DNA of 64,000 nt, from contig AP025250.1 in NCBI GenBank assembly GCA_020886235.1, forward strand, positions 682,001-746,000, written 5' to 3'. Shown piece after piece: positions 31,659 through 50,591 of the stretch (the first letter of the stretch is position 1; each line of letters opens with the position of its first letter). The notes beneath the pieces were generated by a model, which had not been told where the DNA came from, did no database searches, and saw nothing but the letters and a program-made list of their open reading frames with translations. This DNA comes from Candidatus Dependentiae bacterium Noda2021. Its GTDB lineage: Bacteria; Babelota; Babeliae; Babelales; Vermiphilaceae. Position numbers and translations under genes: made by a program.

Positions 31659-32651
31659 ATGAAGTACGAGTTTATAAAACGATTTTTGCTAACCTATCTT
31701 CTGGCTGTGGTGTGCAACACAGCATGCGATGGTAGCAACCAAAAACCATTTGTGGTTATAATACCTTCATATAACAACATCGCGTATTGCGAAAAAAATA
31801 TACGCTCCGTATTTGGTCAAGAATATGAAAATTATCGAGTAATTTATGTTGATGACTGCTCAACTGATGGCACCGGTCAGCGCGTAGAAGAACTCGTTAA
31901 AGAGCTTGGGCAACAACATCGTTTCATGATCGTCCACAATAAAACGCGACGCGGTGCAATGGCAAACTGGGTTATGGCAGTCTGGCTCTGTGATGCACAT
32001 GAAGTGGTCGTAAGCCTTGATGGGGATGATTGGTTTGCACATGAGCGCGTGCTTACTTATTTAGATTCAGTATATCAAGATCCTAATGTGTGGATGACTT
32101 ACGGACAATTTATAATTGATGGCAGCAATCAAGTAGGTTGGTGTAGAGAAATTCCACAAGATATTATTGCACATAATCAATTTCGTGATTATGCCTGGGT
32201 AACCTCACACTTGCGTAGTTTTTATGCGGGCCTTTTCCACGGCATACCAAAAGAAGATTTTATGGCACAAGGACAATTTTATCCTTCTGCTGCCGATCTT
32301 GCTATTATGTACCCACTTCTTGAGCGCGCCGGCACACACAGCCGCTTTGTTCCGGAAATATTGTATGTGTATAACCGCAGCAATCCTCTTAACGATGAGC
32401 GCGTCGATTATTCACTGCAAACTAACGTTGGGCTCTATATTCGCGCGCAAAAGAAACATGCACCCGTTGAGCGTTTTGATGATGCGACCGAAAAACGTAC
32501 AATCTACATTCAAAAAGGATTGTGGGGAACATTGTTTGACCTAAACTCACATCATAATCGTGATAATTGTTTATATCCAACACACCATTTGCGCAACGAG
32601 ATGGCAAAAAAGCGTATCGTCTTAAAGAAACATCAAGCATTGCAGGCTTAA
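31659..32651 (+). CDS. Exported GT2 glycosyltransferase, N-terminal part of a GT2-GT10 fusion
   Basis: 330 residues from the ATG at 31659 (AAAAAAAGGATGTGGC upstream). Signal peptide about 1-22. GT2 domain 30-275: nucleotide-binding start VVIIPSYNN, DDCSTDGT, and the DGDDW metal motif at 121-125. Unlike the two related GT2 proteins (about 275 residues), it does not stop after the domain but continues into IYIQKGLWG and NRDNCLYP, the beginning of a GT10 fucosyltransferase. The frame then ends 13 codons past an A AAA AAG heptamer at 32606-32612. Read as a one-base deletion, the gene encodes a 593-residue bifunctional enzyme (31659-33439); read as programmed -1 shifting, it makes both a GT2 form and a fusion. 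Confidence 0.9.
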   Translation: MKYEFIKRFLLTYLLAVVCNTACDGSNQKPFVVIIPSYNNIAYCEKNIRSVFGQEYENYRVIYVDDCSTDGTGQRVEELVKELGQQHRFMIVHNKTRRGAMANWVMAVWLCDAHEVVVSLDGDDWFAHERVLTYLDSVYQDPNVWMTYGQFIIDGSNQVGWCREIPQDIIAHNQFRDYAWVTSHLRSFYAGLFHGIPKEDFMAQGQFYPSAADLAIMYPLLERAGTHSRFVPEILYVYNRSNPLNDERVDYSLQTNVGLYIRAQKKHAPVERFDDATEKRTIYIQKGLWGTLFDLNSHHNRDNCLYPTHHLRNEMAKKRIVLKKHQALQA

Positions 32652-33439
32652 ACAATGCTCATTCAATTGTGTGCTTTGATGTGCCTATGAATGAGTTAGA
32701 CAGACTCGTAGAATTTTCTTATGAAAAATTATTTTTAATGTTGTGGGAACCGCCTTCAGTTGCACCACACAATTATGATCGCACATTCCACTATCCGTTT
32801 GCCAAAGTTGCAACATGGGTAGATAGCCTAGTTGATCATAAAAAATACCACAAAATGTATTACCCAGTGCATCATGATATGATTACCGACATCGTGCCGT
32901 TTGAGCACAAGAAACTGGCAACCATGATTGCATTTAACAAAAATTCAGGCCATCCCCAACAATTATATACTGAGCGTCAACGACTCGTTGAATTTTACGA
33001 ACATAATCATCCTGAAGATTTTGATATTTTTGGCAGCTTCTGGCCTCAACAGTATCGCACGTTTAAAGGCGCAGTAAAAAACAAAGTTGAAGTACTAAAA
33101 CATTACAAATTTGCCTATGCGTATGAAAACATCCAAGATGTTCCCGGCTATGTGACCGAAAAAATATTTGATGTGTTCTGGGCCGGAACCGTGCCCGTAT
33201 ACTGGGGCGCCAATAATATTGAGCAGTATGTACCAAAAAATTGTTTCATTAATCGCAAAGATTTTAACAGCAATGAAGAGCTCTACCAGCACCTCAAATC
33301 TATGCCTCAAGAAACATATGAGCAGTACCTTGTCAATATAAAAAACTATCTTGCAAGTGAACAAGCACAATTATTTAATGCACATCATTTTGCCGATATG
33401 TTCTCTCGTCTTGTTTTAAACGAATCATTAAGTGAGTAG
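32567..33439 (+). CDS. GT10 alpha-1,3/4-fucosyltransferase domain, continuation of the fusion in the -1 frame
   Basis: This frame carries the body of a GT10 enzyme: LMLWEPPSV, then YAYENIQDVPGYVTEK and AGTVPVYWG, the conserved fucosyltransferase region. It aligns along its length with the complete GT10 gene at 37552-38514. It has no signal peptide, no ATG near the start and no ribosome site; only a TTG directly after an in-frame stop opens it at 32567. The missing GT10 N-terminus (NRDNCLYP) is in the frame of the upstream GT2 gene. So it is not an independent gene. Substrate by family: GDP-fucose. Confidence 0.85.
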   Translation: MFISNTPFAQRDGKKAYRLKETSSIAGLNNAHSIVCFDVPMNELDRLVEFSYEKLFLMLWEPPSVAPHNYDRTFHYPFAKVATWVDSLVDHKKYHKMYYPVHHDMITDIVPFEHKKLATMIAFNKNSGHPQQLYTERQRLVEFYEHNHPEDFDIFGSFWPQQYRTFKGAVKNKVEVLKHYKFAYAYENIQDVPGYVTEKIFDVFWAGTVPVYWGANNIEQYVPKNCFINRKDFNSNEELYQHLKSMPQETYEQYLVNIKNYLASEQAQLFNAHHFADMFSRLVLNESLSE

Positions 33440-33444
33440 TTTGT

Positions 33445-34359
33445 ATGAAAAATAAATTGTTATTTATCCTGTCCTTTATTGTATTCACTCTTACATTACA
33501 GGCCCAACCACTCAACTTTTGTACCGCAAGCAATGCACATTTTTTTAATTGTTTGATGAATTTAATTGGCTGCCTGCACAAACACAATTATCAAGACATT
33601 GGAGAAATTGCCGTATTTGATCTGGGTCTTTCTACAGAACAAAAGGATATCCTAAATGCCATACAAAAAGTATCAATTCATGAAATAGATCGGGTGCATC
33701 CTGATATTTTGACTCCGGTACAAACGACGCCATGGGGCAAAATGGTGCCCGGCTGGTATGCATGGAAAGCGGTGCTGGTCAAGCAAGCATTAGATTTGTT
33801 TGATCGCGTGCTATACATTGATGCGGGCACGACCGTATATCGTCCGCTTAATGATCTTTTTGATCACATTGACTACGCAGGATATTTCTTGCATAATGGC
33901 TCTCCTTGGTGCATTAAACAAGAAACCACCGAGTATGTCATTAATAAATTTGGTCTCAATCACGCAAATAAACAATGGCTTCTTGATGAATCAGTAAAAG
34001 GTCTTGAAGCGGGCTTTTGGGGCGTAACCCGACGCGTATATGATACGTTTGCAATGCCATTGTATGAACTTGCTCATGACTTGAACAATTTTGCAGATGA
34101 TGGCACCTGTCGAGGAGGCTTTGGTAATTGTCGTCATGATATACCCATGTTTTCTATGATAGCACTACTTAATGGATTTACGATTTATCATCATTATCAA
34201 AATCCACGCCAGGATTTACAGCTGCTCACAAGCAAAGGACCTATAACCTTTCACATTGCCTGCAATCCACAAGATCGCACACCTAATACTCATGTCTATT
34301 GCTCACGCATGGATGTGTCTCAATTACAACAGAATGTACAAGCAATTCACTGGAAATAA
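33445..34359 (+). CDS. Exported GT-A fold glycosyltransferase, GT8-like
   Basis: 304 residues. Signal peptide 1-20 (LTLQA). The body starts with NFCTASNAHFFNCL and has the probable metal-binding motif LYIDAGT at 123-129, followed by RPLNDLF, as in GT8-like enzymes where DxD is followed by a membrane-distal strand. The D-A-G triad departs from strict DxD. A later GFGNCRHDIPMFS stretch may form the acceptor site. It starts five bases after the GT10 stop, so it is cotranscribed. Donor and acceptor cannot be told from sequence. Confidence 0.8.
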   Translation: MKNKLLFILSFIVFTLTLQAQPLNFCTASNAHFFNCLMNLIGCLHKHNYQDIGEIAVFDLGLSTEQKDILNAIQKVSIHEIDRVHPDILTPVQTTPWGKMVPGWYAWKAVLVKQALDLFDRVLYIDAGTTVYRPLNDLFDHIDYAGYFLHNGSPWCIKQETTEYVINKFGLNHANKQWLLDESVKGLEAGFWGVTRRVYDTFAMPLYELAHDLNNFADDGTCRGGFGNCRHDIPMFSMIALLNGFTIYHHYQNPRQDLQLLTSKGPITFHIACNPQDRTPNTHVYCSRMDVSQLQQNVQAIHWK

Positions 34360-34378
34360 TTAATAGAAGGAAATAACT

Positions 34379-35053
34379 ATGAATAGCGCACGCGTACTTT
34401 TTTATATCACCGTGGCAACAACAACTACCGCAATTTACTCATATGAACCAAAAATTCACGAACAATGGTGGCAAACGAATTGCAATAGCAAAATACACCT
34501 GTTTAGAGAATGGTACGGATCTGCTGAAACCAAAGAGCGTAAGTTATTATGCGACTACCTTAAAGAAAAGCAGTATAGATCTATACTTGATGCCGGCTGC
34601 AGCTTGTGTACGCTCTTTTTTGCAATAAAAAAAGAACAACTTGATATTGAGTATGATGGACTTGATGTTACCCAAACATTTGTCGATCGCGCACACAAAT
34701 TTGGCATCAGAGCAACGCATGCTTCTATTGAGCACATGCCATTTGAAGACAGCGCGTATGATATTGTCTATGCCCGTCATGTGCTTGAGCATTTAGAATA
34801 TTATCAGCACGCGTTGGATGAAATGATTCGTGTTGCAAAAAAAGAAGTGATGATCTCATTCTTTATGCATCCTAACAATTGGACACCAGATGCTATCAAC
34901 ATTAATACTATTGATGAACTACCGGTATATCACAATCAGTACAATAAGTTAAAGCTAGAATCCTGGATTAAAGATAATCCTAAAGTAGAAAGCGTTTCAT
35001 GGCGCTATGTAGGAAATGATTATTCAGCACACATTATGCTCAAAGCAAACTAA
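34379..35053 (+). CDS. Exported class I SAM methyltransferase (Methyltransf_11-like)
   Basis: 224 residues. An N-terminal hydrophobic stretch, 5-20, acts as signal peptide or anchor. SAM-binding motif I LDAGCSLCTLFF at 70-81, acidic residue of motif II in GLDVTQ (about 94-99), motif IV/V YARHVLEHL at 131-139. The size and order of motifs fit a small-molecule or sugar methyltransferase. It is the last gene of the plus-strand unit that starts with the GT2-GT10 fusion, 19 nt after the previous stop with GAAGGAAATAACT as ribosome site. An exported SAM enzyme is odd because SAM is cytoplasmic. Confidence 0.82.
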   Translation: MNSARVLFYITVATTTTAIYSYEPKIHEQWWQTNCNSKIHLFREWYGSAETKERKLLCDYLKEKQYRSILDAGCSLCTLFFAIKKEQLDIEYDGLDVTQTFVDRAHKFGIRATHASIEHMPFEDSAYDIVYARHVLEHLEYYQHALDEMIRVAKKEVMISFFMHPNNWTPDAININTIDELPVYHNQYNKLKLESWIKDNPKVESVSWRYVGNDYSAHIMLKAN

Positions 35054-35054
35054 A

Positions 35055-35095
35055 GATAAAAGGCCGGCAGATAACATATGCCGGCCTCTTTTTTT
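35055..35095. terminator. Bidirectional intrinsic terminator between convergent genes
   Basis: AGGCCGGCA (35061-35069) and TGCCGGCCT (35079-35087), a 9-bp stem with a 9-base loop, a T8 tract on the plus side and TTTTATCTTT on the minus side. It lies between the stops of the convergent methyltransferase genes. Confidence 0.9.
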
Positions 35096-35099
35096 ACTG

Positions 35100-35822
35100 T
35101 TAGTGTGAAAAATATCTATCAAATTCGTCACACCAATACTTGAACATTTCTTGCTCAGTATCATCGACTAAACTCTCATACAAAATCTGTTTTGCATTAC
35201 GAGCTAATATAGCGGGATCAATATTTTTTTTCTTTTTTGCTTTTACAATAATATTAGGACATAGCTTCCACTGGGTATATTCAATAGCAATATCTTCATA
35301 GCCAAGCAAGCTTAATACATGATTAAACTTTTGCGCATACCAGCCATCCCAATGCACGGCCCAATGAGCTTCATGTGAGCCAAAAATATGGCGCATCGTG
35401 CTTTGTTTTTGAACATACGAGTAGTCATCACTTACCAGTATTTTCATACTTCTTTCAAAATCGGGCGTCTCGATAGTAATAAAGCCATCCAATTCAAGCC
35501 ACTGATGCCAGTTACAAAGAAGCGCAAGAGCAATCGGTCTACTAAAATGTTCAAACACGTGATGAGATCGTACTTCTTTTATAGTTTGTGGTGGCACAGA
35601 TAACTTAGTAATATCTGCATGAAGCTCAGCCGCCGTATTTTTTTGCACAGTATGTTCACTCGGCGGAAAATCTATATTTAGATAACTATTAAGCCGTACT
35701 TGACCACAGCCTAAATGCAAGTGTATGGGTTGCCATAACTCATTAACGTCAAAACTATATTCTGCGTGCAATCCCCACACAGCTAATACGCTCAGTGCTG
35801 CAATTTTTTTTACATGATTCAT
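35100..35822 (-). CDS. Exported class I SAM methyltransferase
   Basis: 240 residues from the ATG at 35822, supported by AAGGATATTTTT; the longer frame upstream overlaps the GT2 gene. Signal peptide 1-20 (LHA). Motif I HLHLGCG at 34-40, acidic LNIDF at 48-52, and RSHHVFEHF (85-93) with ETPDF (118-122), the pattern of the predicted SAM-dependent methyltransferases found in surface polysaccharide clusters. A Lys-rich stretch (AKKKKN) follows the core. Cotranscribed with the GT2 gene 10 nt upstream. The acceptor is unknown. Confidence 0.83.
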   Translation of the reverse strand: MNHVKKIAALSVLAVWGLHAEYSFDVNELWQPIHLHLGCGQVRLNSYLNIDFPPSEHTVQKNTAAELHADITKLSVPPQTIKEVRSHHVFEHFSRPIALALLCNWHQWLELDGFITIETPDFERSMKILVSDDYSYVQKQSTMRHIFGSHEAHWAVHWDGWYAQKFNHVLSLLGYEDIAIEYTQWKLCPNIIVKAKKKKNIDPAILARNAKQILYESLVDDTEQEMFKYWCDEFDRYFSH

Positions 35823-35832
35823 AAAAATATCC

Positions 35833-36651
35833 TTAGTTAAACAATGAAGATAAACGGTTATATGGTTTTTTGCCAAGTACATAATGCATTAGATTTAATT
35901 GCATACGATGATTCACCCGATGATCACTGATAGGGTTTGAGTTGTTATAAATCACCAGCACGTCAGGAATACATTTGTAACGCTCGCCAGCCATTTCTAT
36001 CATCGGTGCCATCATAGCTTTATCACACGTCATTGACAGAAAATTTCCTGATTCATCAAGAAAATCTTCTACGGCAACTTTTTTAAATAACCCTGCATAA
36101 AAAGTGCGTAAATGCGACATAGGTAAATTTTCAAAACGTCTGAACGCGTTGTTCTGTACCACCCATTGGGGAAAATCTTGGCAAAACCCAACCACACCCG
36201 TAGGATATTCTTTATATTGCCCATAGGTGATCCAGACATCATTGTTAGAGTACACATCATTGATATAGGTCATTACATTTTCATGAGCAAACCAATCGTC
36301 GCCGTCTAAAATTAAAATAATCTCTTCATCTTTGCAGGTAGATATTGCCCGATAAAAATTTTCCATGGCACCGCGTCGCTGCGCATTATCTATCATGGCA
36401 AACGGTATCTTCTTTTTTTGCTGAGCACAAAAATGGAGCACTTTATTTTTTGTAGCATCAGTGGATGCATCATTAATATACACAATGCGATAATTAGAAT
36501 AATTTTGTGCAAAAACTGAGGATAAATTTTGTTCGCACCACTGCTCATTATTGTAGGAGGCAATAACAACAACAAGAGGTTTTTCTTCCAGTTGTGCCGT
36601 CACATACATAGAGCAAAATAGAACACATACCGATACTATAATACGCTTCAT
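35833..36651 (-). CDS. Exported GT2 glycosyltransferase
   Basis: 272 residues. Signal peptide 1-19 (YVTA). GT2 core: VVVIASYNN (27-35), YINDASTDAT (58-67), RRGAMENFY (92-100), ILDGDDWFAHE with the metal-binding DGDDW at 116-120, and WITYGQ. It is a clear paralogue of the GT2 part at 31659-32651 and of the gene at 39469-40302, which share SHLRTFYAGLF in the acceptor region. The start has AAAAAGGAC upstream. First gene of a two-gene minus-strand unit with a methyltransferase. Confidence 0.88.
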   Translation of the reverse strand: MKRIIVSVCVLFCSMYVTAQLEEKPLVVVIASYNNEQWCEQNLSSVFAQNYSNYRIVYINDASTDATKNKVLHFCAQQKKKIPFAMIDNAQRRGAMENFYRAISTCKDEEIILILDGDDWFAHENVMTYINDVYSNNDVWITYGQYKEYPTGVVGFCQDFPQWVVQNNAFRRFENLPMSHLRTFYAGLFKKVAVEDFLDESGNFLSMTCDKAMMAPMIEMAGERYKCIPDVLVIYNNSNPISDHRVNHRMQLNLMHYVLGKKPYNRLSSLFN

Positions 36652-36686
36652 TGTGTAGTCCTTTTTTGTAATAAAATTTTATGATG

Positions 36687-36715: not shown

Positions 36716-36810
36716 CCAATCGCCTCTAGGCAATAAGTTGTTTTTATTGTAATTACGTGTTTTTATTGGTAAAAAACAAAAAGATTTTTTTTAAATTAAA
36801 GGATAGTTTT

Positions 36811-37542
36811 ATGAAGCACCGCTTACTCACCTTGTTATTTCTTATTTTTTTTGCACGCATTGCAAATGCACACAGCGTTGGTCTTTTAATGGTTGCCACG
36901 GGTAAATATGTACAGTTTATCCCGCAGCTCATTGAGTCAGCGCGCACCTATTTTTGCAAAGGACATGACGTGCATTACTATGTATTTACTGATGGTAATT
37001 TACAACCTGCACCTGATACCACCATTATTTTTCAACAACGCTTAGGCTGGCCACACGATACATTAAAACGTTTTTCTATGTATGCATCTCATGCTGATCA
37101 ATACCAACATCACGATTATTTATTTGCGCTCGATGCAGATATGCTCTTTGTTGATTACGTAGGCAGTGAGATATTATCTGATCGCGTTGCCACGTTACAT
37201 CCCTGCTTAGTTAATCAACGCGGCACCTATGAAACACGATCAATCTCAACTGCCTGTGTAAAAGCTGATGAAGGCACTCATTATTTTGCCGGTGGTTTTA
37301 ATGGTGGTTCAAGCAAAGAATTCTTAAAGATGGCATGTACCATTACTGCAAATATTGAAAAAGATCTTGAGCATGGTTTTATCGCGTTATGGCACGATGA
37401 AAGCCATTTAAATCGCTATTTTATTGATAATAAACCGACGCTTATTTTATGCCCTGATTATTGTTATCCAGAAGGCTGGGACTTGCCTTATAATCCCAAA
37501 CTAGTTGCCCTTCTAAAAGATCACAAAAAATTTCAAAACTAG
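36811..37542 (+). CDS. Exported GT6 (ABO blood-group-like) alpha-1,3-Gal/GalNAc transferase
   Basis: 243 residues from the ATG at 36811 (AAAGGATAG upstream). Signal peptide 1-20 (IANA). Family GT6 is recognisable throughout: FCKGHDVHYYVFTD (48-61), RLGWPHDTLKRF, ALDADMLFVDYVGSEIL with the metal motif DAD at 108-110, HYFAGGFNGGS (157-167), and the signature WHDESHLNRYF (194-204). Known GT6 enzymes add Gal or GalNAc alpha-1,3 to Gal, often when that Gal carries fucose, which fits the fucosyltransferases around it. Most described bacterial GT6 have NxN in place of DxD; this one keeps the animal-type DxD. It is followed by a GT10 gene 9 nt later. Confidence 0.92.
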   Translation: MKHRLLTLLFLIFFARIANAHSVGLLMVATGKYVQFIPQLIESARTYFCKGHDVHYYVFTDGNLQPAPDTTIIFQQRLGWPHDTLKRFSMYASHADQYQHHDYLFALDADMLFVDYVGSEILSDRVATLHPCLVNQRGTYETRSISTACVKADEGTHYFAGGFNGGSSKEFLKMACTITANIEKDLEHGFIALWHDESHLNRYFIDNKPTLILCPDYCYPEGWDLPYNPKLVALLKDHKKFQN

Positions 37543-37551: not shown

Positions 37552-38514
37552 ATGAAAAACAAAATTATACGTCTTTTGATTGTCTTGTTTACTCCAGTAC
37601 TTAACGCTCAAGTTGTGTATGTGTACGCACCGGGTTGGGAAATCCCGGTTTACTTTGACGCCACCGGCACTACTAAACATTTAAGTAGTGAGGGAATAAC
37701 GATCCAACAAGTTCAACGAGTGTGCCAGATCCCGGATAATGCACCGGCACTATTTTTTGATATTGATTGTGCCAGTGCACAGGAGTATGCATCACGGGCA
37801 CATGCACCTTCAGCACTTTTTCTGTGGGAGCCACCATCGGTAAAGCCCTACAATTACGATACAAGCTATCATCAATACTTTAATCGTATTTATACATGGA
37901 ATGATGCCTTAATTGATAATATGAGATATTACAAGTTTTATTATCCGGTTCGTCACAATATGAAGCGTTCAAGCGATAGCTTTAATGACAAAAAATTGTG
38001 CGTCATGGTAACTGCCTATAAGTCATCTCATCACCCTAATCAGCTGTACACTGAGCGCTCGGGGGTCGTGCATTTTTTTGAAAAAAAACATCCACAAGAT
38101 TTTGACTTATATGGATACGATTGGCCCTCAAGCATTCGCGTCTACAAAGGAACTATTGATGACAAACTTGAAAAGGTTTCTCATTACAAATTTAGTATCG
38201 CCTATGAAAATATTAAAGATGAACCCGGTTATGTAACAGAAAAAATGTTTCATTGTTTTGCCGCAGGTACCGTGCCCATTTACTGGGGTGCATCAAATAT
38301 TTATGACTATGTTCCGCATTCATGCTTTATTGATCGCACCAATTTTTCAAGCAATGAAGAACTGTATGATTATTTAACAAATATGAGCGAGGAAACTCAC
38401 CAAACTTATCTATCTAACATAGAACAGTATTTGCAAACTCCCGCCGCTCATAATTTTAGCAATGCATATTTTGCGCAATTAATTACGCGTGTATGCACTG
38501 AACTTCTTAAATAA
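37552..38514 (+). CDS. Exported GT10 alpha-1,3/4-fucosyltransferase
   Basis: 320 residues from the ATG at 37552; a GTG two codons earlier is also possible. Signal peptide 1-19 (VLNA). Core with VYAPGWEIPVYFD, LFLWEPPSV, YNYD, then the donor-binding region AYENIKDEPGYVTEK (217-231) and AGTVPIYWGASN. It transfers fucose from GDP-fucose by family assignment. It aligns with the C-terminal part of the GT2-GT10 fusion, but here is a stand-alone enzyme with its own signal peptide, which shows what the fused copy has lost. The 3' end overlaps the convergent neighbour by 8 nt. Confidence 0.9.
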   Translation: MKNKIIRLLIVLFTPVLNAQVVYVYAPGWEIPVYFDATGTTKHLSSEGITIQQVQRVCQIPDNAPALFFDIDCASAQEYASRAHAPSALFLWEPPSVKPYNYDTSYHQYFNRIYTWNDALIDNMRYYKFYYPVRHNMKRSSDSFNDKKLCVMVTAYKSSHHPNQLYTERSGVVHFFEKKHPQDFDLYGYDWPSSIRVYKGTIDDKLEKVSHYKFSIAYENIKDEPGYVTEKMFHCFAAGTVPIYWGASNIYDYVPHSCFIDRTNFSSNEELYDYLTNMSEETHQTYLSNIEQYLQTPAAHNFSNAYFAQLITRVCTELLK

Positions 38515-39379
38515 TATTGGGAATATAGGCCATGTGGGCAGATTTATTGTCGAACAAGTATAATTTTTTCCAATCGAGTTTCTTACCTTGTTCAAATAAT
38601 GCAATTTGCTCATCAGGTCCCAGAATTTCCATATTACGATTTGCGCCGTCTGTCTGCACTTGGTTAAGAGGCAAATTTACCATTTTAGCAGTGCTATAGC
38701 ATAACCCAATTCGATGTTGTACCGCACCGGCATGCATAGACCACAGCCCTTCTAATGAATTAGGGGTGTAATACGGCAGTTGAGAAAATAAGGGCATAAT
38801 GTCTGACTTTTTGTAAATGGTCATATCCACGGTGTTGGGATATCCCCAATCATGTTCAGCACCTGCAAAGGTCCAATAATACACTCCCGGTACACACTCA
38901 TGCATCGCCGGTACGCGTTGTGGTTTGTTCATGGTGTAGCAATAATCTAAATGCAATCCCATGCGCAAATAAAAACCATAGGCATTCATATCTTGCATGA
39001 TACTAATCGCATCTTGCAGTGATATATAATCTTTGACAATAATGTCATCAACCGCAAAGAGCACATAAGGCGACTCTGAATTATCTAAGGCGGCTTGAGA
39101 AAGAAGTTTAAAATCACTGTGTGGATTTGATGATTGCGCTGTAAAGTTCACGCTCGGAAATTGTTTGGTTAACTGATGGTAACACTGCGCAGCGCGCTCG
39201 CTCGTGGTACGATATATTACATGCACAGAAGAAAGTCCCGTGACATAATGTTCCACTGATTCTAATAACGCCTGTAACTGTAATGGCCTGTTAAAAGAAA
39301 ATATAATAAGATCAACGCCCGTTGATGCAAACGCACATACATTGGTTATTAAAAATAATGCCAGAAGAAATTGCTTCAT
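38507..39379 (-). CDS. Exported GT-A-like glycosyltransferase (paralogue 1)
   Basis: 290 residues. Signal peptide 1-18 (AFA). Begins with LIIFSFNRPLQLQALLESV, like a GT-A nucleotide-binding strand, then IYRTTSE, and AVDDIIVKD (109-117) as probable metal site. Conserved with the gene at 43329-44216 over its whole length (CYTMNKPQ, DWGYPNTVD, KMVNLPLNQVQ). I do not recognise a named family; fold by motif order is GT-A, activity unknown. AAAGGAACGGT before the ATG. Convergent with, and overlapping, the GT10 gene. Confidence 0.75.
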   Translation of the reverse strand: MKQFLLALFLITNVCAFASTGVDLIIFSFNRPLQLQALLESVEHYVTGLSSVHVIYRTTSERAAQCYHQLTKQFPSVNFTAQSSNPHSDFKLLSQAALDNSESPYVLFAVDDIIVKDYISLQDAISIMQDMNAYGFYLRMGLHLDYCYTMNKPQRVPAMHECVPGVYYWTFAGAEHDWGYPNTVDMTIYKKSDIMPLFSQLPYYTPNSLEGLWSMHAGAVQHRIGLCYSTAKMVNLPLNQVQTDGANRNMEILGPDEQIALFEQGKKLDWKKLYLFDNKSAHMAYIPNII

Positions 39380-42250: not shown

Positions 42251-42252
42251 TC

Positions 42253-43328: not shown

Positions 43329-44216
43329 ATGAACGTCAAAGCCCTCTTAGTTGTATTATTCTGCATGAGCACTGCGATAAAAGCTAATCATGATAAAGCA
43401 GATATGATCATTTTTTCTTTTGATCGTCCGTTGCAACTATATGCGCTTTTAGAGTCAGTAAAAACTAATGTATCGGGAGTTGATACCGTCACGGTAGTAT
43501 ATCGCACCAGCTCTGATGAATTTGATTATGCCTACAAGCTCATACATGATTCATTTAAAGAAGCACGTTTTGTAAAACAAGGCACACAACCCCGCGAAGA
43601 TTTTAAACCACTAACCTTAGCGGCAATCAATAATTCACCTAATAAATACGTCATTTTTGCCGTTGATGATAATATTGTAAAAGATCATGTGGACTTAGAT
43701 TATTGCATTCATGCCATGAAAAAACATCATGCCTATGGGGTGTATTTGCGCCTTGGATTTAACACCGATTTTTGTTACACCATGAATCAAGCACAGTCAA
43801 TACCGGTCCATTACCCCCTAGAGTCAGGGTTGTACGCATGGCAATTTTGCAATGGCACCTGTGATTGGGGCTACCCAAATACCGTCGATCTGACGTTGTT
43901 TAAAAAAAGCGATATTATTAACACCCTTGAAAGCTTATCATTTTATTCGCCTAACGTTCTTGAGAATGCCTGGGCTGCTACCAGTGCATCAGTAGCAACC
44001 CGTATAGGATTATTTTTTGCGCAGTCAAAAATTGTAAATCTTCCGCTCAATATTGTTCAGCAAGATTGGCATAATCGCAATCAACAAGAACTCTTACCTG
44101 AAGATCAATTGGCACTGTTTTTTGAAAATAAAAAAATTGACCTTACGCCACTTCATCAAATAGAGAATAAATCTCCGCACATGGAATATTGCCCAACCTT
44201 TGTTGATCGCACTTAA
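43329..44216 (+). CDS. Exported GT-A-like glycosyltransferase (paralogue 2)
   Basis: 295 residues from the ATG at 43329 (GGAGAAATA upstream); the longer open frame lacks a plausible start. Signal peptide about 1-19. IIFSFDRPLQLYALLESV, VYRTSSDE, AVDDNIVKD (111-119), CYTMNQAQ and DWGYPNTVD align with the gene at 38507-39379. In both, the second Asp of AVDD is kept and the residue after it varies. The product is likely a transferase of the same donor class with a different acceptor. Its stop overlaps the convergent GT23-like gene by 4 nt. Confidence 0.75.
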   Translation: MNVKALLVVLFCMSTAIKANHDKADMIIFSFDRPLQLYALLESVKTNVSGVDTVTVVYRTSSDEFDYAYKLIHDSFKEARFVKQGTQPREDFKPLTLAAINNSPNKYVIFAVDDNIVKDHVDLDYCIHAMKKHHAYGVYLRLGFNTDFCYTMNQAQSIPVHYPLESGLYAWQFCNGTCDWGYPNTVDLTLFKKSDIINTLESLSFYSPNVLENAWAATSASVATRIGLFFAQSKIVNLPLNIVQQDWHNRNQQELLPEDQLALFFENKKIDLTPLHQIENKSPHMEYCPTFVDRT

Positions 44217-45031
44217 CGCAACTCAATCCCTTTTAAGCTAGGGTTAAAGCACAGCACTGCGCTTGAAACATTCGAAATCGTGTGAATGAAGGTATCGGTA
44301 CGAGAAAGAAGTATTACTTCAATCAAAACATCACGTCCACTTTGCGTCTTGTTGGCACACTCTGAATTGTAGTGCAAAGGCGTTCCATCAACCGAGCGCG
44401 GACACGGGAAAAATATAACGGGCTTGTTCAATGCCATCTGCGCTGCTTGTAATATTTCCATCTCATCAGTTGCGACCAAGTATTGATCGGTATCAATAGC
44501 ATTTGCCGTACTAAATATTTTTTCTAGGGGAACATCGGGGCGTTCTACGTGCTTATCGGTTCGTCTAATGTGAATGCCCACTGTTTTCTTGCCGTGCATG
44601 TAAGTGCGATAAAAATCATTTACTGCTTGTTGAATGTGCTCATTAAGCCTAATCCATTTTTTTATAGCGCACGCAATTTTTGTGCGATGGCGAGCACAGG
44701 GCGGTATTGAAAACCACGTCCTACCATTAACATCAAAATAACTATTATGAACATAATCACCGGGTGCGTACTTATAGTTAGAAACCGGTTTAAAAAAACA
44801 TAGCCAGGCGTTGTCACGGCACTCAGGATCACGCTCGTCATAATACAATGAATTAGAATCCCACATCATAACCGGCTCTTTTTTGTGCGCGTGACACCAC
44901 ATTAAATTGTTGAGTGCGCCAAAAAAGCACGAAAAGAACCCGCACCGATGATGGCCAATCACAAACTTATCTTTAGTTTGTGCAAGTGATAAAGCATTTA
45001 CCATGAGTAGCAGCATTACTAATTTTTTCAT
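44213..45031 (-). CDS. Exported GT23 (FUT8/NodZ)-like fucosyltransferase
   Basis: 272 residues from the ATG at 45031 (AGGGGAA upstream). Signal peptide 1-17 (LSLA). The family signature VGIHIRRTDK (151-160) corresponds to the GDP-fucose binding HxRRTDK motif of alpha-1,6-fucosyltransferases. YLVATDE (184-190) and ISNVSSAVLCFNP near the C-terminus match the later motifs of the same GT-B superfamily. The N-terminal FGALNNLMWCHAHKKEPVMMW block is shared with the next gene. Compared with FUT8 it lacks the coiled-coil and SH3 parts, as in bacterial NodZ. Confidence 0.82.
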   Translation of the reverse strand: MKKLVMLLLMVNALSLAQTKDKFVIGHHRCGFFSCFFGALNNLMWCHAHKKEPVMMWDSNSLYYDERDPECRDNAWLCFFKPVSNYKYAPGDYVHNSYFDVNGRTWFSIPPCARHRTKIACAIKKWIRLNEHIQQAVNDFYRTYMHGKKTVGIHIRRTDKHVERPDVPLEKIFSTANAIDTDQYLVATDEMEILQAAQMALNKPVIFFPCPRSVDGTPLHYNSECANKTQSGRDVLIEVILLSRTDTFIHTISNVSSAVLCFNPSLKGIELR

Positions 45032-45131: not shown

Positions 45132-45956
45132 TTAATTTTTGCGCAAGCATAGATTATCAAGAGCCGGATTAAATACTAATACTGCCATGGAAACATTAGA
45201 CCAGGTGTGAATAAAATACTCGCACCGCGCTAGCAAAAGCGCGTCAATCAGGACTTCTTGACCGGCTAACGCTTTGCCGCCAGTTCCATGAAAATGAATG
45301 GGACGACCATCTTTAGAGCGAAAACAATCGGTATGTATAACGGGCCCTGGTAAAAATTTTTTAAACGTATCTAATACGTACTGTTCATCCGTGGCCACGA
45401 AAAATTGACATCCCTTAAACTTACGTGCCTGTTTTATGACCAGCGCAATGGGTATTCTTTTAGTTTCTTGTGATTTATCTGTGCCTCGATAATAAATACC
45501 GATAGTTTTTTTTCCCCTAAAAAAATGACGGTGATAAAATGCCTCAACCGCATCTACAATATGGGGCTTTATCCTGATGTATTTGTCCATAAACTGGTTT
45601 GCAAGACGACGGTTGCTTTTATTGTTTGTAAAATCGGTAAAATTTACATACGCAGTTGGGGGTAGATACTGGTAGTGCACTTCATCGCCTTCGTGATACT
45701 GATCTTGCGAAACCGGCTCAAAATAATATTCCCATGCATTATAAGTATCATTATACCCTTCAGGCTGATAATATAAGCACTTGTCATCCCAATACATGAC
45801 CGGAATTTTATTGTTATGCTCACACCACCATAACTGATTTAAGGCACCAAAAAAAGCAGAAAAGAATCCTGCTCCGTCATGGGAAGAGCACACATATTTT
45901 TCTGGCTGGCAAACAACAGATGTAGCCCATAGCACTAACAAAATTATTTTTTTCAT
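45132..45956 (-). CDS. Exported GT23-like transferase, variant active site
   Basis: 274 residues from the ATG at 45956, the best spaced of three nearby ATGs relative to AGAGGA. Signal peptide 1-16 or so. Same family as its downstream neighbour (FFSAFFGALNQLWWC, FFVATDEQ, TWSNVSMAVLVFNP), but the sugar-nucleotide motif reads GIYYRGTDK (153-161): the His and the first Arg of HxRRTDK are replaced by Tyr and Gly-shifted spacing, while one Arg and TDK remain. It may use another donor or be weakly active. It lies about 100 nt upstream of the canonical copy. Confidence 0.75.
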   Translation of the reverse strand: MKKIILLVLWATSVVCQPEKYVCSSHDGAGFFSAFFGALNQLWWCEHNNKIPVMYWDDKCLYYQPEGYNDTYNAWEYYFEPVSQDQYHEGDEVHYQYLPPTAYVNFTDFTNNKSNRRLANQFMDKYIRIKPHIVDAVEAFYHRHFFRGKKTIGIYYRGTDKSQETKRIPIALVIKQARKFKGCQFFVATDEQYVLDTFKKFLPGPVIHTDCFRSKDGRPIHFHGTGGKALAGQEVLIDALLLARCEYFIHTWSNVSMAVLVFNPALDNLCLRKN

Positions 45957-45997
45957 CCCCATTCCTCTGAGTAAATACAAATCCCATTGTCTGGTAA

Positions 45998-46981
45998 TTA
46001 GTATCTACAAATGAGGTTTGGATTTACAAATAATTTATCATGACCCTTTTTTATCATGGACGCATGTAGAGTTGAGTGTTCACATACTACGGGGCTATCA
46101 TACCCACAGTTAGGGATAAATATGATAGGCAATGGTGCAGGGCGGTTGCCAATCGCATTACGATAACACTGATAAAACTGATGATCAGTACTCATTTTGT
46201 TATTAATTATTTCTTGCATTAACCATTCAAGATCTTGGGTAACAAAGCCCGTATAGTAACAATCACGCAGCGATTCGCGCTTATATATGGCAACCCCACC
46301 AAAGGCTGAATACACTTTTCTGAGCGGTGTACCCGGCAGAAAATAAATGGGCTGCTCAAGGCGAATGCGCCAAAATTCTTCACCAATAAGTTCTGGCCCC
46401 AGAGGAAATTGATCATCACGAAATGCATAGCGATCATAGTGATAATGATCTCCATTTAATCCATTGGCTGCAATACCATCCCATTGATCAGTCACATTGA
46501 GTGATGCAATGATATCATCAACCTGCCAGCCGCGCTGAAAATCTAGATCAGTCATTACCACTAACGAATAGTCATCATAAGCACTATCCATCGCTTGCAT
46601 AAGCACTTGATTGCGAGCATAGGCAATCAATTCCATTCTGCACGGTGCTTGATCACGTAACGCATGACCTTGTGTGCGCTTATGCAATTCGTCACCAGAC
46701 ACATATTCAGATATTACGGTTACTTTAGCGTTATTTAGTGTCCACTGCTCAAGAATATCGGCAGTAGCATCGGTCGAATTATTTTCATAAATAAAAACAC
46801 GGTAGTCTGAAAAGCAGTTTCCCAGCGTCTCTATTTTTGCAATCATGGTGGTCAAACAATGGGCAATATTTTTACCCACACCAAGTATGAGCACTTTTTC
46901 TTTTTTGGGATCGATTGTTGCCTGAGTAATCATGCCCATGAGAACCAAACAAATGCTCAGGAGAATATATCCACGCTTCAT
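45998..46981 (-). CDS. Exported GT-A glycosyltransferase, CAP59/GT69-like
   Basis: 327 residues. Signal peptide 1-21 (ITQA). IYENNSTDATADIL (64-77), RMELIAYARNQVL (115-127) and VVMTDLDFQRGW (141-152) with the DLD metal motif follow the order seen in fungal CAP59-type alpha-1,3-mannosyltransferases. Later FGGVAIYKRESL. The assignment rests on motif resemblance only. AAAAAGGAACTAGGGT before the ATG. Part of a seven-gene minus-strand run (50591 to 44213). Confidence 0.75.
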   Translation of the reverse strand: MKRGYILLSICLVLMGMITQATIDPKKEKVLILGVGKNIAHCLTTMIAKIETLGNCFSDYRVFIYENNSTDATADILEQWTLNNAKVTVISEYVSGDELHKRTQGHALRDQAPCRMELIAYARNQVLMQAMDSAYDDYSLVVMTDLDFQRGWQVDDIIASLNVTDQWDGIAANGLNGDHYHYDRYAFRDDQFPLGPELIGEEFWRIRLEQPIYFLPGTPLRKVYSAFGGVAIYKRESLRDCYYTGFVTQDLEWLMQEIINNKMSTDHQFYQCYRNAIGNRPAPLPIIFIPNCGYDSPVVCEHSTLHASMIKKGHDKLFVNPNLICRY

Positions 46982-47000
46982 ACCCTAGTTCCTTTTTTGA

Positions 47001-47783
47001 TTATTGAGCAGCATATATTTTAAGACGTTCCAGAATTTGCGCTGCCTGGCGCGGATCTTTGCACCCATGCAACATGTAGTATTTAATATCTTTTTGGGTG
47101 TAACCATGCTCGTACGGTACTCGATTTTCACGCCATGCATCAATGCAACCAAAATAAGGGTCATAGACCGGCACGAACTCAGTTGCTTGGTGTTTCCACA
47201 ACAATACATTTAAAATCGTTTCATCAAAATTGGGTGCTGTGTGACCGTATTTTAAGCATGCATCATACCATTCTTGCAAGAATGAGTGGCATGTATGAGA
47301 AAACAAAATATGCGCATGCACGTAGGGCATCGTTTTTTCTGTAACGCCCATGCGACGCATGGTATCAAACTGATTTTGCGGATCGCGTGGATGCAAGGGG
47401 CAGAGCGGATAGTCTGTGATGGTTTTGCACAGGTCAAAAAGGTTATCAACCCCTTGATTTAGAATATCATCTGCTTCTATGTAAACACCATAATCAAGAC
47501 CAGACTCTAAGATGATACGCACTTTAATAAAAAATATGTGCACTTTGCTCAAATCTACATCAATACGCCGTTTAATAAGACGTGGATACTCAGCAGCATC
47601 AAAGGGAATATCCGCATTAATACCATAGGCGATTACGGGACGACTTGAAAAATGGTGCACGCTATCAAGCGTTACTTTAAGTAATTCAAAATAATTGCTG
47701 GTCGCAAAAGTGACAAATCCTTCGCTTGCATTAGCTGTGTTTATTAAAAAAAGGAGTGAGATAAATGCTATTATTTTTTTCAT
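47001..47783 (-). CDS. Exported probable GT-A glycosyltransferase
   Basis: 260 residues. Signal peptide 1-19 (NTANA). FVTFATSNYFELLKVTLDSV resembles the first strand-helix of GT-A enzymes; VYIEADDIL (100-108) would be the metal site. NFDETILNVLLWKH near residue 190 resembles the acceptor-loop helix of GT8-like transferases. No family can be named with confidence. It shares the operon with FkbM and other transferases, 11 nt after the previous gene. Confidence 0.72.
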   Translation of the reverse strand: MKKIIAFISLLFLINTANASEGFVTFATSNYFELLKVTLDSVHHFSSRPVIAYGINADIPFDAAEYPRLIKRRIDVDLSKVHIFFIKVRIILESGLDYGVYIEADDILNQGVDNLFDLCKTITDYPLCPLHPRDPQNQFDTMRRMGVTEKTMPYVHAHILFSHTCHSFLQEWYDACLKYGHTAPNFDETILNVLLWKHQATEFVPVYDPYFGCIDAWRENRVPYEHGYTQKDIKYYMLHGCKDPRQAAQILERLKIYAAQ

Positions 47784-47794
47784 GCCAATTACCT

Positions 47795-48577
47795 TTATTC
47801 TATACCCAGTTGTTGAGCTAATGAGTCAAGATGATATTTGTATGCTTCATAGGGGCGGAGCATATGACAATCAACGTAGTAGCCTTTTTGCAACAATTCA
47901 ACATTGTACGACCATCCACCGCGATCAACACGGCGCTCAACAGTATGCCCAAGTTTTATGCCTCGACTTGTTTTTGCATTCCACTCATTAAAACGTTGAA
48001 AGAGTATCTGCTGATCAGTAGTCCAACCCAACCCAAGGTTGTACCATTGCGTTATGATAGAAGGAATCTCGTCAATTGATTTGATATCAAAAATTTCTTT
48101 GAAGACCCAGCCTTTTGCCGCATTGTAACACATCGGATATTCATTAATATTTTGACCTGCAAATGCACCATCTTTGTACACAACAAAACAATTTTCAAAT
48201 ATAGCACTTACTGATTTGGTAAAATATTCTTTGCTGAGTGGAATCATATCCATGTCTGAAATTATGCAAATGTCATCTTCAAAATACGCAGGCGCCAATA
48301 ATCTAATAACCTGTGCTTGAAATGAGGTAGGGATGCCTGGTAGGGGCTCAAAGCGTATCACGTGCCCCAGGGACTCATCAACAGTAACATCAGCGGGTGC
48401 TACCAAAAATAATGTGGGCTTAATGCCTACAATTTGTTTCCATGTTTTTGCAACTAAGGGCCAAAATTGTAAATAGACTGGGTTTGCATCTGATGCAACA
48501 ATCACGCGATTAATGCGAAACGCCTGTGCTGTGGTCACGGTAAGCAACACACTCAATAATGCTATTTTGAGCATCAT
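47795..48577 (-). CDS. Exported probable GT-A glycosyltransferase
   Basis: 260 residues. Signal peptide 1-19 (TTAQA). RVIVASDANPVYLQFWPLVA, PTSFQAQVIRLLAP and CIISDMDMIPL with DMD at 108-110 give a GT-A outline. WTTDQQILFQRF later in the chain is a typical acceptor-side helix. The start ATG overlaps the stop of the FkbM gene by four bases, so the two are probably translationally coupled, also with AAGGAGCAGCA upstream. Donor unknown. Confidence 0.75.
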   Translation of the reverse strand: MMLKIALLSVLLTVTTAQAFRINRVIVASDANPVYLQFWPLVAKTWKQIVGIKPTLFLVAPADVTVDESLGHVIRFEPLPGIPTSFQAQVIRLLAPAYFEDDICIISDMDMIPLSKEYFTKSVSAIFENCFVVYKDGAFAGQNINEYPMCYNAAKGWVFKEIFDIKSIDEIPSIITQWYNLGLGWTTDQQILFQRFNEWNAKTSRGIKLGHTVERRVDRGGWSYNVELLQKGYYVDCHMLRPYEAYKYHLDSLAQQLGIE

Positions 48578-49305
48578 TGCTGCTCCTTGTCAGTGGCAAT
48601 AACATTCTCACGCGCATTGGCAAAATTGATGTACAAATCATCAAACCCACCAATTTTTTTTATAAAGGTAAATCCCTTTGCGGCCAGAATATCATGAGCA
48701 TCCATGGTATTTTCATTGTTTTCTATGCTGATGGCAAAAATTTTGACCGCATCAAAATCAATAGACTTGATAATGTCTATTTCTGAACCTTCAGTATCAA
48801 TAGATAAATAATCAATGTATGAAATATCATGTTTTTTCATCGTGTCGTTGAATGTGACGACGGGCAAATCAAGTATGGTGTAATAACTGCCCGGCGTGGT
48901 TGCCAAATACCGATTAACTACTTCCCAGCGATGTGGCTCTTCATCAAAAAACTTTTTTAAACCGCTCAGCTCTTCTAACTTGTTAATATCAACAAAGGGC
49001 ATCACACCGGGTGTTCCTGCAACACATGCTTGAATGCATATACAGTTACGACGTGATGCAAGTTCTTTAAAGATGCGCGGCGTTGGCTCAAAACAAATAC
49101 CAGACCAATCAAGCTCTTTTTCAAAAAAATAACTGTTGCTAAAGCAGCGCCCATCATAGGCACCTATATCCACAAAGACACCATTGCGCATATTTTTAAA
49201 ATAGGTTTCATTTAAAAATTGATCTTGTCCCACTTGGCTATAATACTCAGCATATACCGGGACTGCGCACAGCAGTCCCATCAGAATAGTTTTTACACAT
49301 TTCAT
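48574..49305 (-). CDS. Exported FkbM-family methyltransferase
   Basis: 243 residues. Signal peptide 1-19 (VPVYA). FkbM (Methyltransf_21) motifs are clear: YSQVGQDQFL (22-31), GVFVDIGAYDG (42-52), WSGICFEPTP (67-76), and DYLSIDTEGSEIDI. FkbM enzymes methylate hydroxyl groups, often of sugars. The TGA stop overlaps the next gene's ATG. Eight bases separate it from the upstream GT2-TPR gene. A fourth exported methyltransferase type, beside three other classes in the cluster. Confidence 0.88.
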   Translation of the reverse strand: MKCVKTILMGLLCAVPVYAEYYSQVGQDQFLNETYFKNMRNGVFVDIGAYDGRCFSNSYFFEKELDWSGICFEPTPRIFKELASRRNCICIQACVAGTPGVMPFVDINKLEELSGLKKFFDEEPHRWEVVNRYLATTPGSYYTILDLPVVTFNDTMKKHDISYIDYLSIDTEGSEIDIIKSIDFDAVKIFAISIENNENTMDAHDILAAKGFTFIKKIGGFDDLYINFANARENVIATDKEQQ

Positions 49306-49313
49306 AATAAACC

Positions 49314-50591
49314 TTATGCCGCCGCAGCTGCTGCTACTTGTTGTTCAACAATTGCTTTGCGATCTTCGTAGAATTTTAAATTCTTTGTTAAATGCTCAAG
49401 ATGAGGTCTGTTTTTAAGAGCATTGCGCACTTGCGCTTCACCCATATCATATTCACCAATGTACCACGATGAAATGCCAACAACATCATGACGGGTAAAA
49501 TCATAAATATCTTTATCCACAAATAATACATCGTGTTCTGGATACGGCTGCTCACAGGCACGGTGGCCAAATAAATATGCAAGGGCATGCTCACCTTTTG
49601 CAAGGTAGTATTGTGCAATTCTCACGAGCGGCTCAGTACGACATGGGCGATATGAATATGCTTTCAAATAATATTGTAAGGCTTCTGACCAGGTATAGTT
49701 TTCATTATCTTTTGCAAGCCACTCAGTAATTTGAGCAAGGCGATACCAGGTTACAAAGTTTTCTTCATACCAGCCTGGCAAGGTACTGCGGTGCTTGTAA
49801 TACAGATATGCATTTTCAAGATCACCCAAACACGCATAGGTCTGCGCTAAGTAGAAAGTAGTACGCGGATCATTAGGATGCTCACCATGATATTTGAGTA
49901 ACAAATCAAGATCACGCTTCCAACGGGCCATAGACTTATCAGCACCTGCTTGCGATGGACGCAAATCAAAATAAATATCACCCGGTGCTTTGTAAGGAGT
50001 GCCTTCGGTTATAGTTTCGTGAACCACACCACCAAAGCGTAATCCAGCATCTTTACGCAACAAACGCTGTGTGTAAAAATCAATGCTTGGGTTCATGATG
50101 CGCATCAAATAAGATGATTCAATAGTTTTATCTTTGTGCTCTTGGCAAAAATCCATGAGGCCGGGCATGTTAACCATGTACCACTCAGCATCAGGCATCA
50201 TCACAAAAACCGCATTAGGGAATTTTTGCTCGGCCAAATCAAGACCGCGATTACGAGAGGTTGCAAAATCAACAAATGGTTCTTGCGCTATTGCTGCGTT
50301 TGCAATGCCATGTTCTTTAAAAAATTCTTCTGCTTTTGCAATCGTGTCATCGGTAGACCCCGTATCAAATACAAAAAAACCAAGTGATTGTTTTTGTTCT
50401 TGGCTAATACCTTTGATAAATGATTCAAGTGTTGGCTTTATCACCGGCTCTTCATTTTTTACCATCAATACAACCACTAGTAACAAGGGGTCATAATAGG
50501 TATACCCATTTTGAAATGATTGCTCTGCAAACAGCGAGCTTAAAGAAGAGAAAATACACAACAGACTACACAACAGCTTTTTTAACTTCAT
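49314..50591 (-). CDS. Exported GT2 glycosyltransferase with TPR-like C-terminal half
   Basis: 425 residues. Signal peptide 1-22 (SLFA). GT2 core 36-235: VLMVKNEE, VFDTGSTDDT, FATSRNRGL and VMMPDAEWY, where DAE takes the place of the metal-binding DxD. RFGGVVHE is also typical. From about 240 to 400 there are helical repeats (DPRTTFYLAQTYACLGDLENAYLYY) of TPR type, as in other GT2-TPR proteins. The C-terminus ends in six Ala. First gene of the long minus-strand unit, as transcribed. AAAAAGGATCTCC before the ATG. Confidence 0.87.
   Translation of the reverse strand: MKLKKLLCSLLCIFSSLSSLFAEQSFQNGYTYYDPLLLVVVLMVKNEEPVIKPTLESFIKGISQEQKQSLGFFVFDTGSTDDTIAKAEEFFKEHGIANAAIAQEPFVDFATSRNRGLDLAEQKFPNAVFVMMPDAEWYMVNMPGLMDFCQEHKDKTIESSYLMRIMNPSIDFYTQRLLRKDAGLRFGGVVHETITEGTPYKAPGDIYFDLRPSQAGADKSMARWKRDLDLLLKYHGEHPNDPRTTFYLAQTYACLGDLENAYLYYKHRSTLPGWYEENFVTWYRLAQITEWLAKDNENYTWSEALQYYLKAYSYRPCRTEPLVRIAQYYLAKGEHALAYLFGHRACEQPYPEHDVLFVDKDIYDFTRHDVVGISSWYIGEYDMGEAQVRNALKNRPHLEHLTKNLKFYEDRKAIVEQQVAAAAAA

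What the first reader, a model, noticed from the sequence alone, without database searches (positions are those of the whole stretch)
31659..50591. All 20 glycan-modification genes carry signal peptides
Each of the 15 glycosyltransferase genes (counting the GT2-GT10 fusion once) and 5 methyltransferase genes begins with a basic start, a hydrophobic core and usually an AxA-type site (for example NTANA, TTAQA, VPVYA, LTLQA). These families normally act in the cytosol, where nucleotide sugars and SAM are. A whole pathway exported together implies a compartment outside the inner membrane with those donors, for instance the periplasm fed by transporters, or a host vacuole or cytosol.
Basis: partly seen in the sequence, partly recalled or inferred. 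Interest (0 to 1): 0.9.

Follow-up and report, generated by a model that had tools for sequence, protein, structure and literature searches.

The report
Exported sugar-coating enzymes of a parasite
A bacterial parasite of single-celled eukaryotes (Dependentiae) puts secretion tags not only on its sugar-attaching and methyl-attaching enzymes but also on the enzymes that make the activated sugars, so it appears to run a glycan factory outside its own cell, most likely inside the host; no description of such an exported pathway was found.

Summary
All 20 genes start with a leader of signal-peptide anatomy: median cut after residue 19, small residue at -1 in 20/20 (Ala in 16), positive n-region in 20/20. 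The starts are real: a Shine-Dalgarno-like motif precedes 17/20, against 3/114 internal ATGs. No SignalP was available; a home-made score (false-positive rate 3.4% per start). The genome background is high (35-42% of genes), and most of the window is secretome, including about 30 collagen-like genes flanking the cluster, so leaders alone do not single the cluster out.

The decisive finding lies outside the window. In the same genome, enzymes that make the donors also have leaders: GDP-mannose dehydratase (Gmd), GDP-fucose synthase (Fcl), UDP-glucose dehydrogenase and two UDP-sugar-type SDRs. Relatives carry tandem leadered and leaderless Gmd, and leadered ManC. Leadered Gmds form a supported lineage with intact catalytic residues. 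GT6 is leadered in Dependentiae and Chlamydiae (40/49) and leaderless elsewhere (39/39).

Fcl needs NADPH and ManC needs GTP, so I favour secreted enzymes using host-cytosol metabolites over a transporter-fed periplasm. Export beyond the inner membrane and the acceptor remain inferred.

The parts
31659..32651 (+). GT2 glycosyltransferase with leader MKYEFIKRFLLTYLLAVVC
   Evidence: PF00535 E 2e-20; leader and AAAGGA upstream
32567..33439 (+). GT10 fucosyltransferase frame in -1 relative to the GT2 ORF, no leader of its own; A_AAA_AAG at 32606-32612
   Evidence: PF00852 E 3e-17; sequence; stand-alone homologues
33445..34359 (+). GT8-like glycosyltransferase with leader
   Evidence: no Pfam hit itself; homologue L098 hits PF01501 E 6e-4, below cut-off; leader
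34379..35053 (+). SAM methyltransferase with leader
   Evidence: PF08241 E 2e-13
35100..35822 (-). methyltransferase-like, leader start at 35822
   Evidence: PF08241 E 0.0065, below cut-off
35833..36651 (-). GT2 with leader
   Evidence: PF00535 E 8e-18
36811..37542 (+). GT6 (ABO/BoGT6a family) with leader
   Evidence: PF03414 E 4e-48; 4ayj and ABO chains; leader absent from non-endosymbiont GT6
37552..38514 (+). GT10 fucosyltransferase with leader
   Evidence: PF00852 E 1e-15
38507..39379 (-). GT-A-fold glycosyltransferase with leader
   Evidence: AF2 pLDDT 83, Foldseek hits GnT-I, TarP, SpsA
39469..40302 (+). GT2 with leader (weakest cleavage site)
   Evidence: PF00535 E 5e-18; score 3.44
40330..41271 (+). 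GT-B (GT4-like) glycosyltransferase with leader
   Evidence: PF00534 E 0.007, homologue PF13692 E 3.5e-4, both below cut-off
41283..42215 (+). methyltransferase (Methyltransf_24-like) with leader
   Evidence: PF13578 E 3e-4, below cut-off
42253..43218 (-). methyltransferase-like with leader
   Evidence: PF00891 E 0.005, below cut-off
43329..44216 (+). paralogue of 38507-39379 (GT-A fold) with leader
   Evidence: 46% identical
44213..45031 (-). GT23/NodZ-FUT8-like fucosyltransferase with leader
   Evidence: PF05830 E 5e-4, below cut-off
45132..45962 (-). paralogue of 44213-45031 with leader
   Evidence: PF05830 E 1e-4, below cut-off; 41% identical
45998..46981 (-). GT69/CAP59-like mannosyltransferase with leader
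   Evidence: PF11735 E 3e-7
47001..47783 (-). putative glycosyltransferase with leader (family not verified)
   Evidence: no Pfam hit; homologue in L089
47795..48577 (-). GT-A (GT6-like fold) glycosyltransferase with leader
   Evidence: AF2 pLDDT 78; Foldseek best BoGT6a/ABO
48574..49305 (-). FkbM methyltransferase with leader
   Evidence: PF05050 E 7e-18
49314..50591 (-). GT2 (+TPR-like tail) with leader
   Evidence: PF00535 E 6e-6
462..31398 (-). array of about 25 secreted collagen-like (BclA-like) genes, candidate acceptor proteins
   Evidence: PF01391, and weak PF18573 in some; GXY runs, 57% Thr at Y over the window
50713..61957 (-). further secreted collagen-like genes with repeat domains
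   Evidence: PF01391 for 54098-55939; GXY runs

Best explanation
The window lies in a genome of Dependentiae (TM6), a phylum whose isolates are obligate intracellular parasites of protists. The 20 genes are the transferase and methyltransferase arm of an exported glycan-making system. The enzymes enter Sec through cleavable signal peptides and leave the inner membrane. I infer that they then cross the outer membrane, perhaps through the T2SS-like secretins or vesicles, and work in the host cytosol (or a host-cytosol-fed vacuole). There, donor enzymes exported by the same genome (Gmd, Fcl, UDP-glucose dehydrogenase, UDP-sugar-type SDRs; in relatives also ManC) turn host GDP-mannose, UDP-sugars, NADPH and NAD+ into GDP-fucose and other donors. 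The exported GT10, GT23-like, GT6 and GT2 enzymes and the methyltransferases use these donors and host SAM to build glycans that are probably O-methylated. The acceptors are either the parasite's own Thr-rich collagen-like surface proteins, encoded on both sides of the cluster, or host glycoconjugates. Shown by sequence: real leaders, conserved and clade-specific; intact catalytic motifs in Gmd and Fcl; leadered donor enzymes. Inferred: passage beyond the inner membrane, the compartment, the products and the acceptor.
For: Leaders real, with Shine-Dalgarno-like motifs at the leader start. Leaders kept in 89 of 115 homologues of the cluster at score >=4, and most of the rest show a hydrophobic leader. 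Own genome: Gmd (TIGR01472 578 bits, cut-off 415), Fcl (499 vs 500) and a UDP-glucose-dehydrogenase-like protein (TIGR03026 444 vs 190) all have 20-28-residue leaders with Shine-Dalgarno-like motifs. The domain begins where leaderless PDB enzymes begin: Gmd residue 21 = E. coli GMD residue 2; Fcl residue 30 = residue 4. All four PF01370 proteins of the genome are leadered. In relatives Gmd is bimodal: 24 with a hydrophobic extension of 17-51 aa, 25 without a leader, both kinds in one genome in G025, G017, G015, G010, G026, G028 and G008, often in tandem. Leadered clade 20 of 21 rows, SH-aLRT 99. Catalytic E, Y and K invariant in all 24, with Thr in 22 and Ser in 2. ManC leadered in several relatives. 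GT6: endosymbiont clade 40/49 leadered, other bacteria 0/39. A Chlamydiae genome also has two leadered Gmds. SPase I and two secretins present. No Wzx-type flippase above cut-off. NADPH, NAD+ and GTP needs are established enzymology.
Against: No experiment and no SignalP. No direct evidence for outer-membrane passage. A few homologues have long N-terminal segments that may be uncleaved anchors with positive charges after them (L095 GT6) or lack a leader (L098_9870; L116 Gmd). The genome has eight EamA-domain matches in four proteins that could feed a periplasm. Cysteine content does not discriminate compartments. Collagen proteins are absent from some genomes with the same GTs (G017), so they cannot be the general acceptor.
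Confidence: 0.6

Rival explanations
1. Periplasmic or surface glycosylation: the enzymes stay in the periplasm or at the outer membrane, and nucleotide sugars, SAM, NADPH and GTP are brought there by transporters (EamA-type and others) or leak from the host through porins.
For: Sec leaders alone deliver to the periplasm; four EamA proteins in the genome; secreted collagen-like proteins next to the cluster are natural surface acceptors.
Against: Would need steady NADPH, NAD+ and (in relatives) GTP and mannose-1-phosphate outside the inner membrane; no precedent known to me for periplasmic Gmd, Fcl or ManC. Several genomes keep a second, leaderless Gmd, so the cytosol can already supply donors to an ordinary surface pathway.
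Confidence: 0.22
2. The N-terminal segments are uncleaved inner-membrane anchors that hold the enzymes at the membrane, with catalytic domains facing the cytosol, as a glycan-assembly metabolon.
For: Hydrophobic segments can anchor; a few homologues have long segments followed by positive charges (L095_7678, L089_13574).
Against: In the window 20/20 have a positive n-region and a small residue at -1, 16/20 Ala, median cut at 19, and few positive charges after the cut, which is signal-peptide anatomy with N-in orientation. Soluble Gmd and Fcl need no anchor, and leaderless paralogues exist beside the leadered ones.
Confidence: 0.1
3. Mis-called starts or chance: the true proteins begin after the leader and the enzymes are ordinary cytosolic ones.
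For: Fcl has an internal Met just before its domain; 35-42% of genes in this genome score as leadered.
Against: 17/20 Shine-Dalgarno-like motifs at leader starts vs 3/114 internal ATGs; the internal Fcl Met has none while its leader start does; own Gmd has no internal Met between leader and domain; leaders conserved over tens of genera.
Confidence: 0.03

Closest known systems
Chlamydia trachomatis exported glycogen metabolism (GlgA and others in the inclusion lumen; UDP-glucose via host SLC35D2; eLife 2016, PMC4829429)
   Same: Bacterial sugar-nucleotide-using enzymes secreted to work on host donors outside the bacterium
   Different: Type 3 secretion, glycogen only; no exported de novo donor synthesis, no fucosyl-, ABO-type or methyl-transferases
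Giant-virus glycosylation systems (PBCV-1 GMD/GMER, mimivirus fibril pathways and collagen GT L230; review PMC9614988)
   Same: Parasite-coded nucleotide-sugar enzymes, GTs and methyltransferases work in the host cell; collagen-like acceptors in mimivirus
   Different: Made in the host, so no leaders are needed; here a cellular bacterium would have to export them
Bacillus anthracis BclA exosporium glycosylation (collagen-like protein with O-methylated anthrose)
   Same: Thr-rich GXT collagen-like proteins next to glycan genes including methyltransferases; weak BclA C-terminal domain matches
   Different: BclA glycosylation enzymes are cytosolic (own knowledge); here they are leadered
Secretome of Chromulinavorax destructans and Babela massiliensis (PMC6561590, PMC4378268)
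   Same: Dependentiae; 44% of CDS with signal peptides in C. destructans; secreted ankyrin and other effectors, type II secretion predicted in Babela
   Different: The main-text searches made here turned up no exported glycan or nucleotide-sugar pathway
Bacterial GT6 enzymes (BoGT6a, 4ayj)
   Same: Same family and fold
   Different: BoGT6a and the non-endosymbiont GT6s are leaderless; BoGT6a has NAN where this one has DAD

Membership tests
Sec-dependent exported proteins | Tripartite signal peptide at the true translation start | tested here: met
   n/h/c anatomy in 20/20, score >=4 in 19/20, Shine-Dalgarno-like motif 17/20
Sec-dependent exported proteins | Signal peptidase I in the genome | tested here: met
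   PF10502 at 783 kb
Sec-dependent exported proteins | Cleavage and translocation observed | not testable with these tools
   needs fusions or mature N-termini
Host-acting secreted enzymes (effector-like) | Secretion route across the outer membrane | tested here: inconclusive
   two secretin genes at 1116-1121 kb; T2SS versus T4P not resolved, and not shown to carry these proteins
Host-acting secreted enzymes (effector-like) | Found in a host compartment | not testable with these tools
   needs fractionation or imaging of infected cells
GDP-L-fucose de novo pathway | Gmd and Fcl with intact catalytic residues | tested here: met
   Gmd TIGR01472 578 bits (cut-off 415); Fcl NF047922 499.3 vs 500, just short of its cut-off, but SSCIYP and YAIAK motifs intact
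GT6 family (ABO/BoGT6) | PF03414 above cut-off | tested here: met
   164 bits vs 25; PDB 4ayj E 3e-48
Wzx/Wzy O-antigen or capsule locus | Wzx flippase | tested here: not met
   only one PF01943 match, below cut-off (20.8 vs 28.2 bits), at 508 kb, away from the cluster
BclA-type glycosylated collagen | Collagen repeats with Thr-rich triplets and BclA_C domain | tested here: inconclusive
   PF01391 met; BclA_C E 2e-8 to 1e-4 but below its cut-off; 522/908 triplets with Thr at Y; glycosylation not testable

The most novel reading that the evidence does not exclude
An obligate intracellular bacterium exports a nucleotide-sugar pathway (Gmd, Fcl, UDP-sugar enzymes; ManC in relatives) together with glycosyltransferases and methyltransferases, and runs it in the host cytosol from host sugar phosphates, GTP, NADPH and SAM. 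It would be a bacterial counterpart of giant-virus glycan factories, shared by gene transfer with protist-infecting Chlamydiae, in which tandem cytosolic and exported copies of one enzyme serve two compartments.
Probability: 0.5. Interest if true: 0.93.

Novelty: new variant of a known kind. Interest (0 to 1): 0.85.

Why it matters
Leloir glycosyltransferases and nucleotide-sugar enzymes of bacteria are treated as cytosolic by default. Tens of genomes of two parasite phyla show leadered versions, with leaderless paralogues side by side as natural controls. That predicts donor chemistry outside the bacterial cell and gives a direct, testable hypothesis for how Dependentiae coat themselves or remodel protist hosts. 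It also warns that pathway annotation of such organisms may assign whole pathways to the wrong compartment.

Tried and rejected
Mis-called starts: rejected. Collagen-like proteins as universal acceptor: rejected as a general rule, because G017 has many GTs and no collagen; kept as an option for this genome. Classical Wzx/Wzy surface polysaccharide locus: not supported. In-frame GT2-GT10 fusion: none seen in the relatives' stretches examined; the frame change maps near an A_AAA_AAG run, but the downstream RNA fold is no better than shuffles (z 0.11), so programmed frameshift versus indel stays open. Cysteine content as a compartment marker: uninformative. Ten literature searches found no description of exported nucleotide-sugar enzymes in Dependentiae (among them; one further search call was rejected for its wording); the library holds open-licence papers only. 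A PDB sequence search for 47795 found nothing.
Full report
What was checked. The window is 682001-746000 of a 1.22 Mb single-contig genome. This phylum contains obligate parasites of protists; Chromulinavorax destructans has signal peptides on 44% of its proteins (PMC6561590) and Babela massiliensis is predicted to use type II secretion (PMC4378268).

The leaders. All 20 genes have an N-terminal leader. At the chosen start, all 20 have a positive n-region and a small residue at -1 (16 Ala), with a median cut after residue 19. A Shine-Dalgarno-like motif lies upstream of 17/20 leader starts but of only 3/114 internal ATGs. The home-made score; its false-positive rate is 3.4% per internal Met. 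Background must be kept in mind: 35-42% of sampled genes score, and 28 of 33 other genes of this window do. Against the genome the cluster is enriched (p=2e-6), against its own neighbourhood it is not (p=0.26). The neighbourhood is about 30 secreted collagen-like genes whose GXY triplets carry Thr at Y in 522 of 908 cases; Thr-rich triplets are also the glycosylated part of BclA (own knowledge).

Identity. Nine of the 20 exceed a Pfam cut-off: GT2 (31659, 35833, 39469, 49314), GT10 (37552), GT6, GT69-like, Methyltransf_11 and FkbM; the 32567 frame is a GT10 too. GT23/NodZ-like, GT4-like and three methyltransferases are sub-threshold. Two Pfam-less families were modelled and match GT-A enzymes. 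47001-47783 remains unverified.

Homologues. In 20 stretches from relatives plus a second own locus, 89 of 115 homologues score as leadered and most of the rest show a hydrophobic leader by eye. For GT6 the tree splits with SH-aLRT 98 into a clade holding Dependentiae and Chlamydiae (40 of 49 leadered, the two phyla intermixed, suggesting gene transfer) and a clade of gut and free-living bacteria (0 of 39; typical start MKIGILYICTGKY). PDB BoGT6a begins where the mature part of this enzyme begins.

The decisive step. A second locus of the same genome at 66.7-74.8 kb holds two leadered GT2 genes plus leadered UDP-glucose-dehydrogenase-like, GDP-fucose synthase (Fcl) and GDP-mannose 4,6-dehydratase (Gmd) genes. 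Gmd residue 21 aligns with residue 2 of E. coli GMD, Fcl residue 30 with residue 4; both have the Shine-Dalgarno-like motif at the leader start, while the internal Met of Fcl has none. All four SDR 'Epimerase' proteins found in the genome are leadered, whereas GalU, ribonucleotide reductase and one GT2 at 77 kb are not, which shows that enzymes are not leadered indiscriminately.

Relatives as controls. Of 49 Gmd rows collected, 24 have extensions of 17-51 residues with a hydrophobic leader and 25 have none, nearly all starting within a few residues of the domain. Seven genomes carry both forms, several in tandem with Fcl and with a leadered ManC (ManC confirmed by Pfam in two). On a tree built from the domain only, 20 leadered rows plus one exception form a group with support 99; four other leadered rows lie elsewhere, so leaders arose or were lost more than once. 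Catalytic Glu, Tyr and Lys are invariant in all leadered copies, and the catalytic Thr position is Thr in 22 and Ser in 2, so they are kept as enzymes. A Chlamydiae genome has two leadered Gmds in tandem.

Mechanism. Sec export is well supported by sequence. The next step is inference: Fcl consumes NADPH, UDP-glucose dehydrogenase NAD+, ManC GTP, and the methyltransferases SAM (established enzymology). A host cytosol has all of these and a periplasm ordinarily does not. SPase I and two secretins are present; no Wzx flippase passes its cut-off. The closest functional precedent is C. trachomatis, which secretes glycogen enzymes into its vacuole and uses host UDP-glucose (PMC4829429). Giant viruses supply their own GMD/GMER and GTs in the host cell (PMC9614988). 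Possible acceptors are the flanking collagen-like proteins or host glycoconjugates; collagen cannot be the general answer because some GT-rich relatives lack it.

Limits. No SignalP, no wet evidence, no proof of outer-membrane passage. Trees are quick searches with single support values. The background comes from about a third of the genome. The literature search covers open-licence papers only.

Noticed in passing
32567-32651: GT2 ORF and GT10 frame overlap in the -1 frame around an A_AAA_AAG heptamer (32606-32612): programmed frameshift, real indel or sequencing error; no in-frame GT2-GT10 fusion in the relatives examined and no unusual RNA fold downstream.
   Followed up: partly
462-31398 and 50713-61957: About 30 secreted collagen-like genes, some with weak BclA_C domains, 57% Thr at Y; collagen family present in 19 of 51 genomes searched, up to 85 matches in one.
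   Followed up: partly
L009:11713-19770: Second own-genome locus with leadered UDP-glucose dehydrogenase, two GT2, Fcl and Gmd.
   Followed up: yes
L161:1087-3105 (G000 about 1095-1097 kb): Adjacent leadered Polysacc_synt_2-type SDR (UDP-sugar 4,6-dehydratase-like) and RmlD-like SDR; may make a second donor, perhaps UDP-rhamnose-like.
   Followed up: partly
L157:1387-2937: GlmU-like gene with two starts preceded by Shine-Dalgarno-like motifs, one giving a leader and one a leaderless protein: possible dual targeting of one enzyme.
   Followed up: no
L136, L137, L138, L139, L140, L141, L100: Leadered and leaderless Gmd in the same genome, often tandem with Fcl and a leadered ManC.
   Followed up: yes
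L251/L254: Chlamydiae genome with two tandem leadered Gmds; chlamydial loci also hold leadered GT6, GT2 and apparent GT11-like genes.
   Followed up: partly
L098:11644-13791: In G033 a flippase-like multi-TM protein is fused to a GT2 domain, next to a leaderless GT2: possible cytosolic variant of the same family.
   Followed up: no
L105:8683-10113, L093:9459-11147, L104:9859-11694: Multi-domain fusions among these exported GT families.
   Followed up: no
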